Assembly (NCBI RefSeq): GCF_000518885.1
Contig: NZ_JAEL01000034.1
Coordinates: 1 to 51,503, forward strand
DNA from: Bacillus sp. J33
GTDB taxonomy: Bacteria > Bacillota > Bacilli > Bacillales > Cytobacillaceae
Direction of reading: 5' to 3'
Length of the DNA: 51,503 bases
This document shows positions 25,590-51,503 of this stretch, one piece after another. The translations under genes were made by a program, and so were the position numbers. A model generated the notes under the pieces. The model made no database searches, was not told the DNA's origin, and saw nothing but the letters and a program-made list of their open reading frames with translations. Positions within the stretch are counted from its first letter, which is position 1, and the number at the start of each line of letters is the position of its first letter.

Positions 25590-25660
25590 GTTAAACAAAA
25601 AAGGCGCCTAGTTTGGCAGCTGATCTTGAACATAAACACTCCTATTTGTTTAAGTACAAT
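25590..25660 (+). repeat. Dispersed-repeat copy (GCCTAGTTTGGCAGCTGATC form)
   Basis: Reads GGCGCCTAGTTTGGCAGCTG then TCTTGAACATAAACACTCC. A close relative lies at 49405-49462. Confidence 0.6.
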
Positions 25661-47686: not shown

Positions 47687-47779
47687 TTCTGAGCCCACAC
47701 TCCCCGGTTAAGGTTCTTATATTTTTCTTTTCCGCTATTCCAGACTCCTTCTGCAAATATCCTGCCCTTTCGTATTATA

Positions 47780-48000
47780 AGGTCACCAGATATTTCTGGT
47801 TGACCTATTTTTTTATGGTCTTATTATATCAGTAGCCAGGGTAGAACGTAACTGCCCGTGGGGCTTCGACCCCGTCAGCTAAACGGTTCGCCCCCTACTT
47901 GTAGAAACATGATTGAGGCTGGTTGGGACTTAGATCTCGTATAACAAGCGAAGCTGTGACACTGCATGGAGGAATTAGGGATACTGGCAAATGACTAGTT
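47780..48000 (+). ncRNA. Putative bridge RNA in the IS110 left end, copy 1
   Basis: Non-coding but strongly conserved with the same region of copy 2: GGTAGAACGTAA, hairpin GGGG-CTTCGA-CCCC, GTCAGCTAAAC, CTACTTGTAGAAACATG, TTGAGGCTGGTTGGGACT, ATAACAAGCGAAGCT. Differences are clustered in short blocks such as CTG/GCA at 47851 and CTTC/CATT in the loop. IS110 elements encode a bridge RNA at this position that pairs with target and donor DNA. Boundaries are estimates. Confidence 0.6.
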
Positions 48001-48018
48001 TAGGAGGAGGAATTAGAA

Positions 48019-49254
48019 ATGAATCCAGTCATAGGTCTGGATGTTTCAAAAGGGGAAAGTCAAGTTCAGGCATTTTTAGATAAAGGCAAACCATATCGTA
48101 AGAGTTTTAAAGTTTCTCATACTATTGAAGGTCTTAATTTACTTGTAGAGTTTCTGGAAGTCGTAAAGAGAGAAACAGGTAAGAAACCACCTATCGTTCT
48201 AGAAGCAACAGGACATTATCATTCCTCTGTTGTTCAATACTTGGAGGAACGTGGATATTTATTGATCATCATTAATCCACTGATTTCTTATAAAGTTAAA
48301 AGTTCAAGTCTTCGGAAAGTAAAGACAGATGCGGTCGATGCTTACCATCTCTGCGAGCTATTTTATAAAGAGGATCTTGAGCCATATAAAAAGCGTGGAG
48401 TTCAACTTTTAAACCTTCGAAATCTTACCAGACAGCACGAGAATATAACTGGGGTATTAATTCAAACAAAGCTACAATTTCAAGCTATTCTGGATCAGGT
48501 CTTTCCTGAATATAGAGGGGTTTTTGGCGACTTATATTCAGTAGTATCACTGTTAACTCTTTCAGAGTTTTCCTCATCTGAAGATATATTAGAGGCAAGT
48601 ATTGAAACCATAGCTGACAAAATCGCTCAATTATGTAAAAGCCGTTCATACAGATGGGCTAATGAAAAAGCTATTCAACTCAAAGCTGCCGCAGACCGAA
48701 ATCCGTTTGAAAAGACTTTGTATCAGAGTCATATTTTGAGTCTAGGTATGTATATAAACATCATTCTTCAATACAAAGAGCACCTATCCAAGTTAGAGTC
48801 AGAGATAGATGCCCTCGCAAAAGAAGTTGAAGAATATAACATCATCAAATCTATCCCAGGTATCGGTGAAAAGATCGCTGCAACGATCATTTCAGAAATT
48901 GGGGAGATAGATCGATTTACTGATCCTAAAAAGCTCGTAGCTTTCGCTGGAGTTGATCCTAGTGTATTCGAATCTGGTAAGTTTACAGCCACCAAAAACC
49001 GAATCACCAAAAGAGGATCCAGTAGGCTTCGTCACGCCTTATATATGGCTGTTCGTTGTGCGATTCGTGACTGTCGCAAGAGCAAAACAAGCGATGAGAT
49101 CATTCCTCGTAATAAGAAATTACGAGAGTTCTATGATAAGAAACGTGAAGAAGGAAAACCCTTTAAAGTAGCTGTCATTGCTTGTGTAAATAAGCTCTTA
49201 CATTGGATATTTGCCCTTTTAAAGAATAAAACGACTTTCCAAGATATAGCTTAA
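48019..49254 (+). CDS. IS110-family DEDD transposase, copy 1
   Basis: A 411-residue recombinase with a RuvC-like N-terminal domain, predicted catalytic Asp8 (GLDVSKG), Glu62 (VLEATGHYH), Asp104 and Asp107 (KTDAVDAY). The C-terminal Tnp_20 domain has IPGIGEKIAATIISEIG and the Ser-containing GSSRLRHALY (Ser334/335), which acts as the nucleophile in this family. It joins donor and target with the help of the RNA from the element's own left end. AGGAGGAGG precedes the ATG. The frame is complete, so the element could be active. Confidence 0.95.
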   Translation: MNPVIGLDVSKGESQVQAFLDKGKPYRKSFKVSHTIEGLNLLVEFLEVVKRETGKKPPIVLEATGHYHSSVVQYLEERGYLLIIINPLISYKVKSSSLRKVKTDAVDAYHLCELFYKEDLEPYKKRGVQLLNLRNLTRQHENITGVLIQTKLQFQAILDQVFPEYRGVFGDLYSVVSLLTLSEFSSSEDILEASIETIADKIAQLCKSRSYRWANEKAIQLKAAADRNPFEKTLYQSHILSLGMYINIILQYKEHLSKLESEIDALAKEVEEYNIIKSIPGIGEKIAATIISEIGEIDRFTDPKKLVAFAGVDPSVFESGKFTATKNRITKRGSSRLRHALYMAVRCAIRDCRKSKTSDEIIPRNKKLREFYDKKREEGKPFKVAVIACVNKLLHWIFALLKNKTTFQDIA

Positions 49255-49280
49255 AACCTATATCTAACTAAATAACACAA

Positions 49281-49310
49281 AACCTTCCAAAATTAGTCTA
49301 ACGGAAGGTT
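49281..49310 (+). terminator. Hairpin after the IS110 transposase, copy 1
   Basis: AACCTTCC / GGAAGGTT with a 14-nt loop, followed by ATTTGG. It is conserved in copy 2 (51392-51421), which indicates a functional terminator or right-end structure. Confidence 0.65.
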
Positions 49311-49394
49311 ATTTGGTATGCGCATTTTTAGTATAGCATGGGATATTTTAAATTTTTATTGAAAAATATTGACAAACTATTAGCTGGTTTTGTT

Positions 49395-49462
49395 GAATAA
49401 GAAAAAGCCGCCTGGTTTGGCAGCTGTTCTTGAACAAAAGCACTCGATAGTTCAATAAGATA
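49395..49462 (+). repeat. Dispersed-repeat copy abutting the IS110 right end
   Basis: GCCGCCTGGTTTGGCAGCTG, then TTCTTGAACAAAAGCACTCG and TAGTTCAATAAG. The best preserved copy in the window; compare 25590-25660. Confidence 0.65.
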
Positions 49463-49464
49463 AT

Positions 49465-49868
49465 TTAATTTCCGTTCACTTTGCGGAGTATGTACTCTCT
49501 AAGAATATTACCAGTTTTATAAAAAGTCTCGAACGTTTTTAATGCATCTTTAATACTTAATATTTCATTCCTTTATACCGAGATTGCTCCCCTACTGTAA
49601 TTAATTGAAATAGGATTTTTGTTTTCCTTTTCTATACCTAATACAGAATGTATTTCTGATTGTTTATATTCTATAGTAAGCCTTAATTTAGCCCTTGCAT
49701 ATTGGATAAAGTCACCATTTTCTTTGGTTAAAATAAAAAAAGATTTAAAACGTGGATTGATTCCGTAAATGCTGCAAGATTATTTCTATGGTAGGATTAT
49801 TAATCTTTTTTGTTCCATTATCTGTTTCGTAGTCAATATCACTCAACTCACCACTTGTAAACTTCAAC
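49465..49868 (-). pseudogene. Decayed gene trapped between the IS110 copies
   Basis: Minus-strand segments in different frames read LKFTSGELSDIDYETDNGTK, then RFKSFFILTKENGDFIQYAR, AKLRLTIEYKQSEIHSVLGI, and after a stop SIKDALKTFETFYKTGNILR, ending RKVNGN. At least two frameshifts or stops separate them. The 5' end is cut close to the left end of IS110 copy 2, so the insertion probably killed it. No family was recognised. Confidence 0.55.
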
Positions 49869-49889
49869 TAAAGCTCCCGTTCGTATTAT

Positions 49890-50110
49890 ATGGTTAGCCA
49901 GATATTTCTGGTTGACCATATTTTATATGGTTTTATTATAACCATGTAGCCGGGGTAGAACGTAAGCACCCGTGGGGCATTGACCCCGTCAGCTAAACCG
50001 TTCGCCCTCTACTTGTAGAAACATGTTTGAGGCTGGTTGGGACTATGATCTCGCATAACAAGCGAAGCTATGATACTACAAGAGGAATTAGGGGTAACCG
50101 GCAATCTAAT
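49890..50110 (+). ncRNA. Putative bridge RNA in the IS110 left end, copy 2
   Basis: Carries the same conserved blocks as copy 1 (GGTAGAACGTAA, CCCGTGGGG, GACCCCGTCAGCTAAAC, CTACTTGTAGAAACATG, GAGGCTGGTTGGGACT), with the hairpin loop CATT instead of CTTC and GCA instead of CTG before the hairpin. Such local changes are what different target-guide loops would show. Boundaries are estimates. Confidence 0.6.
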
Positions 50111-50129
50111 TATTTGGAGGAGATTTAGA

Positions 50130-51365
50130 ATGAATCCAGTCGTTGGTCTGGATGTATCAAAAGGAGAAAGTGAAGTTCAAGGATTTTTAGATAAAGGAAA
50201 ACCTTATCGTAAAAGCTTTAGTATCCGACATGATCTAGAAGGTTTAGGATTATTACTTGAGTTTCTTAAAGAAATAAAAGATATAACCGGGCAACAGCCT
50301 CCGGTTGTATTAGAAGCTACAGGACATTATCATGCTCCAGTTGTTCAGTATTTGGAGGAGCGAAATTATTTATTAATAATCGTCAATCCATTGATTTCAC
50401 ATAGAGCCAAAAGTTCGAGTTTACGAAAAGTGAAAACAGATGCAGTTGATGCTTATCGCCTCTGCGAGCTTTACTATAAAGAGGAGTTAGAGCCCTATAA
50501 AAGGCGTGGAATTCGACTCTTAAATCTGCGTAATCTCACAAGGCAACATGCAAATATAACCGAGATATATGTACAAACCAAATTACAATTTCAAGCAGTA
50601 TTAGATCAAGTATTTCCAGAATATAAGGGGGTTTTTGGTGAGTTATACTCTGTAGTATCTTTACTTACTCTGCAAAAATATCCTACATCAAAAGATATCT
50701 TAGCTGCTAGTGAAGATGAGTTAGCTAATGGGATAAAAGAGTTATATAAACATGGATCAAAAAAATGGGTAAAAGAAAAGGCACAAAAACTTAAGAATGC
50801 CGCAGCCCGTAATCCATTTCAAGCAACTTTGTACAAAAGTCATTTATTAAGCATGAGTATGTATATTGATATGCTTCTTCAATATAAAGAGCATCTATCA
50901 AAGTTAGAGACAGAGATAGATACTCTCGCTAAGGAAATTGAAGAATATAAGATTATCCAATCTATCCCTGGCATTGGTGAAAAAATCGCGGCAACGATTA
51001 TTTCCGAGATTGGCGAGATAGACCGGTTTAATCATCCTAAAAAGCTAGTCGCATTCGCCGGAGTTGATCCAGAAGTATTTGAATCTGGTAAATTTAAAGC
51101 CACACTAGTACGAATTACAAAACGTGGTTCAAGCAGACTACGGCATGCCTTATATTTGGCTGTTCGTGCAGGAATACGTGACGCTCGTAAAAAGAAAACA
51201 AGTGATGAGATAATCCCAAGAAATAAGAGATTAAGAGAATTTTACGATAAGAAACGCAGTGAAGGTAAATTGTATAAAGTAGCAGTTATTGCTTGTGTTA
51301 ACAAGCTCTTACATTGGATATTTGCTATATTAAAAAACAAAACCACTTTCCAAGATATTGCTTAG
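50130..51365 (+). CDS. IS110-family DEDD transposase, copy 2
   Basis: A 411-residue homologue of the first transposase; 27 of the first 30 residues are identical, while the middle (residues 180-230) differs most. Catalytic residues are preserved (GLDVSKG, VLEATGHYH, KTDAVDAY, GSSRLRHALY). ATG 50130 follows GGAGGAG; a longer frame upstream runs through the conserved non-coding left end and is not a real extension. The gene is intact. Confidence 0.95.
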   Translation: MNPVVGLDVSKGESEVQGFLDKGKPYRKSFSIRHDLEGLGLLLEFLKEIKDITGQQPPVVLEATGHYHAPVVQYLEERNYLLIIVNPLISHRAKSSSLRKVKTDAVDAYRLCELYYKEELEPYKRRGIRLLNLRNLTRQHANITEIYVQTKLQFQAVLDQVFPEYKGVFGELYSVVSLLTLQKYPTSKDILAASEDELANGIKELYKHGSKKWVKEKAQKLKNAAARNPFQATLYKSHLLSMSMYIDMLLQYKEHLSKLETEIDTLAKEIEEYKIIQSIPGIGEKIAATIISEIGEIDRFNHPKKLVAFAGVDPEVFESGKFKATLVRITKRGSSRLRHALYLAVRAGIRDARKKKTSDEIIPRNKRLREFYDKKRSEGKLYKVAVIACVNKLLHWIFAILKNKTTFQDIA

Positions 51366-51391
51366 AAACTATGTCTAACTAAATACAGAAA

Positions 51392-51421
51392 AACCTTCCA
51401 GTAACCGTTTAACGGAAGGTT
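51392..51421 (+). terminator. Hairpin after the IS110 transposase, copy 2
   Basis: AACCTTCC / GGAAGGTT with a 14-nt loop, the counterpart of 49281-49310. An inner AACCGTTTAACGG element differs from copy 1. Confidence 0.65.
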
Positions 51422-51503
51422 ATTTAGCATGCGCATTTTTAGTATAACATGAGTAATTTAAGTTTTTTAGTGAAAAATGTTGACAAACTATTAGCTGGTT
51501 TAG

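What the first reader, a model, noticed from the sequence alone, without database searches (positions are those of the whole stretch)
47768..49390. Right-end -35 and left-end -10 boxes would join into a promoter in the circular IS110 intermediate
Seen: the right end of both copies has TTGACA (49369-49374; 51480-51485) followed by AACTATTAGCTGGTTT. The left end begins TTCG then TATTAT (47773-47778; 49883-49888). Joined end to end they give TTGACA, about 16 to 18 bp, TATTAT, close to a consensus sigma-A promoter reading into the putative bridge RNA and transposase. Junction promoters are known for IS110-type circles. This would restrict strong expression to the excised form.
Basis: partly seen in the sequence, partly recalled or inferred. 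Interest (0 to 1): 0.75.

Follow-up and report, generated by a model that had tools for sequence, protein, structure and literature searches.

The report
Split promoter rebuilt in excised circle
Both copies of this bacterial IS110 jumping gene carry half of a promoter-like sequence at each end, so that excision into a circle is predicted to complete it and switch on the element's guide RNA and recombinase, a trick already known for this family, and a conserved hairpin right behind the join would likely also shut out transcription coming from the host.

Summary
Uninterrupted sites in related genomes support a 2-bp TT core, so each predicted circle reads TTGACA-17 bp-TATTAT. Anchored without the -35 box, 78 of 84 distinct full-length relatives have TTGACA-16/17-TA[AT]TAT, as do all 11 of 14 more distant loci (to 44% identity) that keep both ends. 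Host flanks rarely supply the missing half. The elements are IS110-group, with a predicted bridge RNA whose guides match their flanks; the -10 box covaries with the donor guide in 91 of 91. Junction promoters are already published for IS110, so this is a well-supported instance of a known kind. 'Restricted to the excised form' is only partly supported: an internal TTGA[CA]C-type site at 16 bp spacing is present in 84 of 91 left ends. New and untested: all 72 distinct left ends carry a terminator-like hairpin starting directly behind the -10 box, placed so that host transcripts would complete it while circle transcripts probably would not. No complete junction of the window's own element was found.

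The parts
47769..49389 (+). IS110-group element, copy 1, with the TT core counted at both ends; predicted circle 1,619 bp
   Evidence: End alignment, uninterrupted related sites, script
47773..47778 (+). TATTAT, -10 half of the junction promoter, copy 1; also part of the right donor sequence
   Evidence: covariation with donor guide 91 of 91
47780..47806 (+). Hairpin directly behind the -10 box, followed by ATTTTTTT: predicted bridge RNA 5' stem-loop and terminator-like
47800..47827 (+). Internal promoter-like site TTGACC-16-TATTAT, copy 1
47850..47858 (+). Left target guide AACTGCCCG, copy 1 (predicted)
47875..47884 (+). Right target guide TCAGCTAAAC, copy 1 (predicted)
47917..47924 (+). Left donor guide GGCTGGTT, copy 1 (predicted)
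47940..47952 (+). Right donor guide TATAACAAGCGAA, copy 1 (predicted); its second base covaries with the third base of the -10 box
48019..49254 (+). IS110 transposase/recombinase, 411 aa, copy 1
   Evidence: PF01548, PF02371; NF033542
49369..49374 (+). TTGACA, -35 half of the junction promoter, copy 1
49390..49466 (+). Right flank of copy 1: member of a REP-like repeat family that holds the target sites
49880..51500 (+). IS110-group element, copy 2, with the TT core counted at both ends; the contig ends at 51503
49884..49889 (+). TATTAT, -10 half of the junction promoter, copy 2
49890..49919 (+). Hairpin directly behind the -10 box, copy 2
49912..49939 (+). Internal promoter-like site TTGACC-16-TATTAT, copy 2
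49964..49972 (+). Left target guide AAGCACCCG, copy 2 (predicted)
   Evidence: copy 2 was not in the guide statistics
50130..51365 (+). IS110 transposase/recombinase, 411 aa, copy 2
51480..51485 (+). TTGACA, -35 half of the junction promoter, copy 2

Best explanation
Each end of these two IS110-group elements carries one half of a sigma-A-type promoter-like sequence (TTGACA in the right end, TATTAT in the left end), and excision into a circle is predicted to join them at a 17-bp spacing and so to drive the bridge RNA and then the transposase. Shown: the boxes, the conservation, the guide-flank matches and the covariation of the -10 box with the predicted donor guide; the TT core and the spacing after the join rest on alignments and uninterrupted related sites. 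Inferred: circle formation, promoter activity and start site. The RNA made from the junction would guide insertion at that same junction, because its donor guide reads the -10 region; insertion would then split the promoter and silence it. In the inserted state two features would keep the element quiet: the flank rarely supplies the missing half, and a terminator-like hairpin right behind the -10 box would stop transcripts entering from the host, while a transcript starting about 7 bases behind the -10 box would begin inside the hairpin's 5' arm and escape. A weaker internal site (TTGACC-16-TATTAT) may supply basal expression for excision.
For: Exact boxes at 17 bp in both copies. 91 clean elements: spacer 17 in 76 and 16 in 15, TTGACA exact in 89, 10 or 11 of 12 consensus bases in all. 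Anchored without the -35 box: 78 of 84. Both-ended distant elements: 11 of 11, from 14 loci tested. Five distant multi-copy groups of 12 tried give TTGAC[GT]-16/17-TA[TC][AT]AT, read by eye. Flanks: -35 of 5/6 or better in 0 of 90, usable -10 in 5 of 88. Guides match their own flanks, 0 of 5,000 permutations. -10 third base covaries with the donor guide in 91 of 91. A chromosomal join of 28 right-end bases to a left end in a 38%-identical relative reads TTGACG-16-TATAAT. Junction promoters shown for other IS110/IS1111 elements (passages). Hairpin in 72 of 72 left ends.
Against: No complete junction of this family was found: 0 of 193 family genomes apart from two 3-mismatch hits that read as a right end plus flank and were not opened, 0 of 398 class genomes, none in viral contigs, none in plasmids after follow-up. 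The whole right end from the -35 box to the core is nearly invariant, so the box could be kept partly for other reasons. Relatedness of the elements is not corrected for in the counts. The internal site (84 of 91) weakens the circle-only claim. For the hairpin gate: a start at base 17 still leaves a structure of -8 kcal/mol or better in 45 of 72; 3 of 13 distant rows keep or gain a hairpin of -8 or better next to a T tract (L226, L230, L233); 5 of 6 distant multi-copy groups lack it. Folded alone, the copy 1 RNA is no more stable than shuffles (z 0.14), unlike copy 2 (z -3.59).
Confidence: 0.8

Rival explanations
1. The inserted element is mainly expressed from an internal promoter in the left end (TTGACC-16-TATTAT; 47800-47827 and 49912-49939), whose start would fall near the base of the target-binding stem; the junction promoter only adds to this.
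For: Present in both copies; TTGA[CAT]C at exactly 16 bp from TATTAT, TATGAT, TATCAT or TACGAT in 84 of 91 elements although the spacer sequence varies.
Against: The -35 hexamer is also the 3' arm of the conserved hairpin, so it may be kept for pairing. At 9 of 12 or better it is found in only 4 of 11 distant elements with both ends (scan limited to left-end bases 23-52), while the junction boxes are kept in all 11. The scanner finds no excess of promoter-like sites in the region (8 against 13.0).
Confidence: 0.35
2. The hairpin behind the -10 box is only the 5' stem-loop of the bridge RNA and does not act as a terminator; the junction transcript starts at left-end base 11-13 and contains all of it.
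For: A 5' stem-loop is part of the published IS110 consensus (PMC11208160, passage). A few two-sided changes keep an outer pair (columns 14/45), as expected if the junction RNA contains it.
Against: The stem starts at left-end base 11 in 31 and base 13 in 36 of 72 left ends, closer to the -10 box than a sigma-A start usually lies (recalled), and is followed by at least 5 T in 9 bases in 72 of 72. Only 1 of 6 distant multi-copy groups has it, so it is not a general need of the family.
Confidence: 0.45
3. The end sequences are conserved only because the bridge RNA and recombinase recognise them as donor, and the promoter match is a by-product.
For: The right end from the -35 box to the core is nearly invariant, and the -10 box covaries with the donor guide, so donor recognition does constrain it.
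Against: When the donor base changes, the box changes between TATTAT and TAATAT but keeps T1, A2, A5 and T6. In IS621 a 22-bp donor without the -35 box still worked once the bridge RNA was supplied from elsewhere (PMC11208160, passage), so TTGACA is not needed for recombination there. Distant elements with other donor sequences keep TTGAC and TANNAT at 16-17 bp.
Confidence: 0.08

Closest known systems
IS621 and orthologues (IS110 group, bridge RNA; PMC11208160 and PMC11208158, passages read)
   Same: DEDD/Transposase_20 recombinase; noncoding RNA in the left end with target- and donor-binding loops; -35 box in the right end and -10 box in the left end joined across the core in the circle
   Different: TT instead of CT core; targets are two sites in a Bacillaceae repeat family; T-tract hairpin directly behind the -10 box; internal promoter-like site. 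Whether IS621 has the last two was not tested here
ISEc21 (IS110) and ISEc11 (IS1111) minicircles (PMC11187229, passages read)
   Same: Abutted ends create a promoter in the circle; the element's RNA sets the target
   Different: Other hosts and targets; ISEc11 has its noncoding region downstream of the transposase
IS10/IS50 protection from read-in transcription (recalled, no call bears on it)
   Same: A hairpin that only transcripts from outside can complete, because the element's own start lies inside it
   Different: There the hairpin hides the ribosome-binding site; here it would be a terminator. Similar working only, no kinship

Membership tests
IS110 family, IS110 group (bridge-RNA type) | N-terminal DEDD domain (PF01548) and C-terminal Transposase_20 domain (PF02371) | tested here: met
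   Both copies above the curated cut-offs; NF033542 above cut-off
IS110 family, IS110 group (bridge-RNA type) | Noncoding RNA upstream of the transposase with target- and donor-binding loops | tested here: met
   By prediction: consensus fold, guide-flank matches, donor covariation; no RNA data
IS110 family, IS110 group (bridge-RNA type) | Scarless insertion at a 2-bp core | tested here: met
   2 of 4 aligned related sites are gap-free over the join, one is a base shorter, one aligns poorly; end alignment
IS110 family, IS110 group (bridge-RNA type) | Conserved catalytic serine in the C-terminal domain | not tested
   Domain match only
IS110 family, IS110 group (bridge-RNA type) | Circular intermediate | not testable with these tools
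   Needs PCR or reads; no junction of this family
IS110 junction promoter | -35 in the right end and -10 in the left end at 16-18 bp after joining | tested here: met
IS110 junction promoter | Transcription from the joined ends | not testable with these tools
   No expression data
IS1111 group | Noncoding RNA downstream of the transposase | tested here: not met
   The guides lie upstream, in the left end
IS1111 group | Subterminal inverted repeats | not tested
   No call

The most novel reading that the evidence does not exclude
The left end of this Bacillaceae IS110 clade is a two-lock control region. Excision assembles the promoter, and the promoter's start lies inside the stem of a terminator, so that only transcripts coming from the host complete the hairpin and stop there: the element is deaf to its neighbours and speaks only as a circle. 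An internal promoter that starts near the base of the target-binding stem supplies the short guide RNA and recombinase needed to leave the chromosome.
Probability: 0.3. Interest if true: 0.65.

Novelty: new variant of a known kind. Interest (0 to 1): 0.45.

Why it matters
Junction promoters of IS110 are known, so the main claim is a new, well-supported instance in Bacillaceae. What adds to it is the layout: the -10 box would serve at once as promoter and as the donor sequence read by the RNA it makes, and a terminator-like hairpin sits behind it in all 72 distinct left ends examined in the close family. If the gating works, it explains how such elements stay silent downstream of active genes. 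The internal site gives a handle on how an inserted copy makes RNA: the authors of the IS621 structure paper write that it remains unclear whether excision is mediated by the recombinase-bridge RNA complex (PMC11208158, passage). Compact circle-gated promoters could also help those who build bridge-RNA tools.

Tried and rejected
Searches for the joined promoter found nothing complete for this family. One search covered only the 16-bp class by mistake and was redone. Three Paenibacillus urinalis plasmid hits looked like junctions; the one read in full (L151) is an ordinary left end whose target flank happens to resemble the right end, and the other two have the same gene layout. A strict palindrome search for the target repeat in the own genome gave few and weak hits; the repeat showed only with the real flank as query. 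Rfam gave no match up to E = 1. Of 12 multi-copy groups the boundary script gave usable ends for 5 (G243, G529, G269, G323, G365); it failed or overran for G356, G317, G284b, G435b, G409, G768 and G892.

Rows dropped: two misplaced left ends (first rows of L100 and L109) were removed, 93 to 91 elements; one search repeats the counts on the clean 91. In one search, 4 of 91 elements had no readable guide by the script (L002, which is window copy 2, L009, L069, L103), and 85 remained after dropping unreadable flanks and duplicates. In one search one of 13 distant rows (the first L231 row) is a spurious site, and the second L232 row is; neither is counted. One search used 14 of the 17 loci (L227, L250 and L252 left out).

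differ on the shortened hairpin: with a start at base 17, 0 of 72 keep a hairpin of -8 kcal/mol or better next to a T tract, but 45 of 72 keep a structure of -8 or better without that demand. I considered that the third T of GGTTT belongs to the element, which would give 18 bp; rejected because of L064 and L077. The idea that the target repeat is itself mobile was not tested. Papers: passages of PMC11208160, PMC11208158, PMC11187229 and PMC8024623 were read; PMC1525189 only as a listing with the start of its abstract.

Full report
What was checked. The two copies were read directly. Copy 1 runs from 47769 to 49389 and copy 2 from 49880 to 51500, each counted with a TT core at both ends. Both right ends hold TTGACA followed by AACTATTAGCTGG and the core; both left ends begin with the core, then CG, then TATTAT. 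Joined with the core counted once, both copies give TTGACAAACTATTAGCTGGTTCGTATTAT, a 17-bp spacer.

How the ends were fixed. An alignment of ends in fetched loci (output cut in the middle) shows the element starting at TTCG and ending at GCTGG plus TT; the next T is usually there but is A in L064 and L077, so it belongs to the target. The joined flanks of copy 1 were searched in 36 genomes of the genus. Four matching loci were aligned: in L256 and L258 an uninterrupted site aligns over the join without a gap, L261 is one base shorter, and L257 aligns poorly beyond the join. This fits insertion at a 2-bp core.

Conservation. From the loci a motif search gave 93 distinct elements, two of them with misplaced left ends. 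On the clean 91, TTGACA is exact in 89, the spacer is 17 in 76 and 16 in 15, and the -10 box is TATTAT or TAATAT; 61 match 11 of 12 consensus bases and 30 match 10. Because that search used the motif, it was repeated with an anchor that leaves out the -35 box: of 84 distinct elements with a full transposase and enough flank, 78 have TTGACA-16/17-TA[AT]TAT. The other six are L087 (TTGGCA), L085 (left end not found), L075 (right end not found), L022 (anchored on a second right end), L115 (right end displaced) and L034 (unread bases). In more distant relatives from the class search (transposases down to 44% identity), 11 of 14 loci tested have both ends, and all 11 have TTGACA-16/17-TATTAT. Of 12 multi-copy groups tried, five gave usable ends; read by eye, with a TT or CT core, they give TTGAC[GT]-16/17-TA[TC][AT]AT at 30-38% transposase identity. 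The counts do not correct for relatedness.

Specificity of the join. With the -10 box fixed in the left end, the host flank supplies a -35 hexamer of 5/6 or better at 16-18 bp in 0 of 90 elements and 4/6 in 10 of 90; with the -35 box fixed in the right end, the flank supplies a usable -10 in 5 of 88. So in most inserted copies neither half is completed.

The element is a bridge-RNA IS110. The proteins match PF01548, PF02371 and NF033542. The consensus fold of 48 left ends shows a 5' stem-loop, a target-binding loop and a donor-binding loop, 45 pairs, 8 of them with a change on both sides in at least one sequence. Folded alone, copy 1 is no better than shuffles (z 0.14) and copy 2 is (z -3.59). 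The left target guide of each element matches its own left flank better than those of others (5.59 against 4.37 of 8), and the right target guide likewise (5.07 against 4.53), with 0 of 5,000 permutations reaching the observed value (85 elements). The two window copies have different left guides, AACTGCCCG and AAGCACCCG, and sit next to ...TCCTGCCCT and ...AAGCTCCCG; a left end on contig C40, identical over the 92 bases present, sits next to AAGCACCCG. Distant relatives use other targets with look-alike guides, for example L241 and L243 (read by eye). The donor guide reads the -10 box: its base varies with the third base of the -10 box in all 91 elements, T with A in 63 and A with U in 28; this may be few events.

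The hairpin. Behind the -10 box every one of 72 distinct left ends has a hairpin that starts at left-end base 11 to 15 and is followed by at least 5 T in 9 bases (mean -17.0 kcal/mol); dinucleotide shuffles reach -8 anywhere in 18 of 150. A transcript starting at base 17, the usual distance (recalled), no longer has such a hairpin next to a T tract in any of the 72, although some structure of -8 or better remains in 45 of 72 if the T tract is not demanded. Among the 11 distant elements with both ends, 8 have the hairpin at base 11-13, L226 has one that starts at base 17, and L236 and L243 have none; of six more distant groups only L189 has it. In L226, L230 and L233 a hairpin of -8 or better next to a T tract is present even with a start at base 17, which speaks against a simple gate there. 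The reading as a read-in terminator is an inference; the same hairpin is the expected 5' stem-loop of the bridge RNA.

The internal site. TTGACC-16-TATTAT is in both copies. At spacing 16 a TTGA[CAT]C with TATTAT, TATGAT, TATCAT or TACGAT is found in 84 of 91 elements. In the distant set it reaches 9 of 12 in 4 of 11. It may be a clade-specific basal promoter or a by-product of the hairpin arm. It is why I do not accept 'restricted to the excised form' as shown.

Looking for the circle. The joined sequence was not found in 193 genomes of the family with up to 3 mismatches (two hits read as a right end followed by flank, not opened), in 398 of the class with up to 2, in viral contigs, or in plasmids (followed up). 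L103 (Neobacillus sp. PS3-12) has CTATTAGCTGG directly before its left end, without a -35 box. In G243 contig C37, 28 bases of right end abut the left end of a relative (38% identity) and give TTGACG-16-TATAAT in the chromosome. Both show that such joins occur, at the predicted place, but neither is a circle of the window's element.

What is known. Passages of PMC11208160, PMC11208158 and PMC11187229 state that IS110 and IS1111 circles form a promoter across the joined ends; the first two tie it to the bridge RNA. So the core of the finding is a member of a known kind. I saw no mention of a phased terminator or a second internal promoter in the passages read or in the listings; those searches cover open-access papers only, and I did not read whole papers.

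Verdict. Observation confirmed; interpretation supported for the promoter and open for the restriction of expression. The hairpin gate and the internal site are the parts that would be new.

Noticed in passing
49390-49466 and 25598-25641: The right flank of copy 1 belongs to a REP-like repeat family: 16 places at E <= 2e-4 in the own genome, itself included, and matches to the joined flanks in 29 of 36 genus genomes. The unit seems to hold two target sites, one per side, used by elements with CTGCCC-type and GCACCC-type guides (by eye).
   Followed up: partly
51406-51503; contig C40 (L005, L007): Copy 2's last 95 and first 92 bases recur identically at the two ends of contig C40, so copy 2 is probably multi-copy and the window ends at an assembly break inside the repeat; its right flank is unknown.
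   Followed up: partly
L154 3001-3546; G021:C27:7004-7333: Shortened elements that keep both ends but lack much or all of the transposase gene: in a Peribacillus asahii plasmid and, from coordinates alone, in G021. They could be moved by a full copy.
   Followed up: no
L024 3125-3134: Two left ends face each other about 9 bases apart, as if one element had inserted next to another in opposite orientation.
   Followed up: no
49281-49310: A palindrome AACCTTCC...GGAAGGTT after the transposase gene in the right end, which could end the transposase transcript before the junction; similar in copy 2 by eye.
   Followed up: no
L254 (G243:C37), about contig position 108,600: An inserted relative carries 28 bases of right end directly before its left end, so a complete junction-type promoter sits in the chromosome; the retained piece stops just upstream of the -35 box.
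   Followed up: partly
L103 about 1242-1254: A left end preceded by 11 bases of right end without the -35 box.
   Followed up: partly
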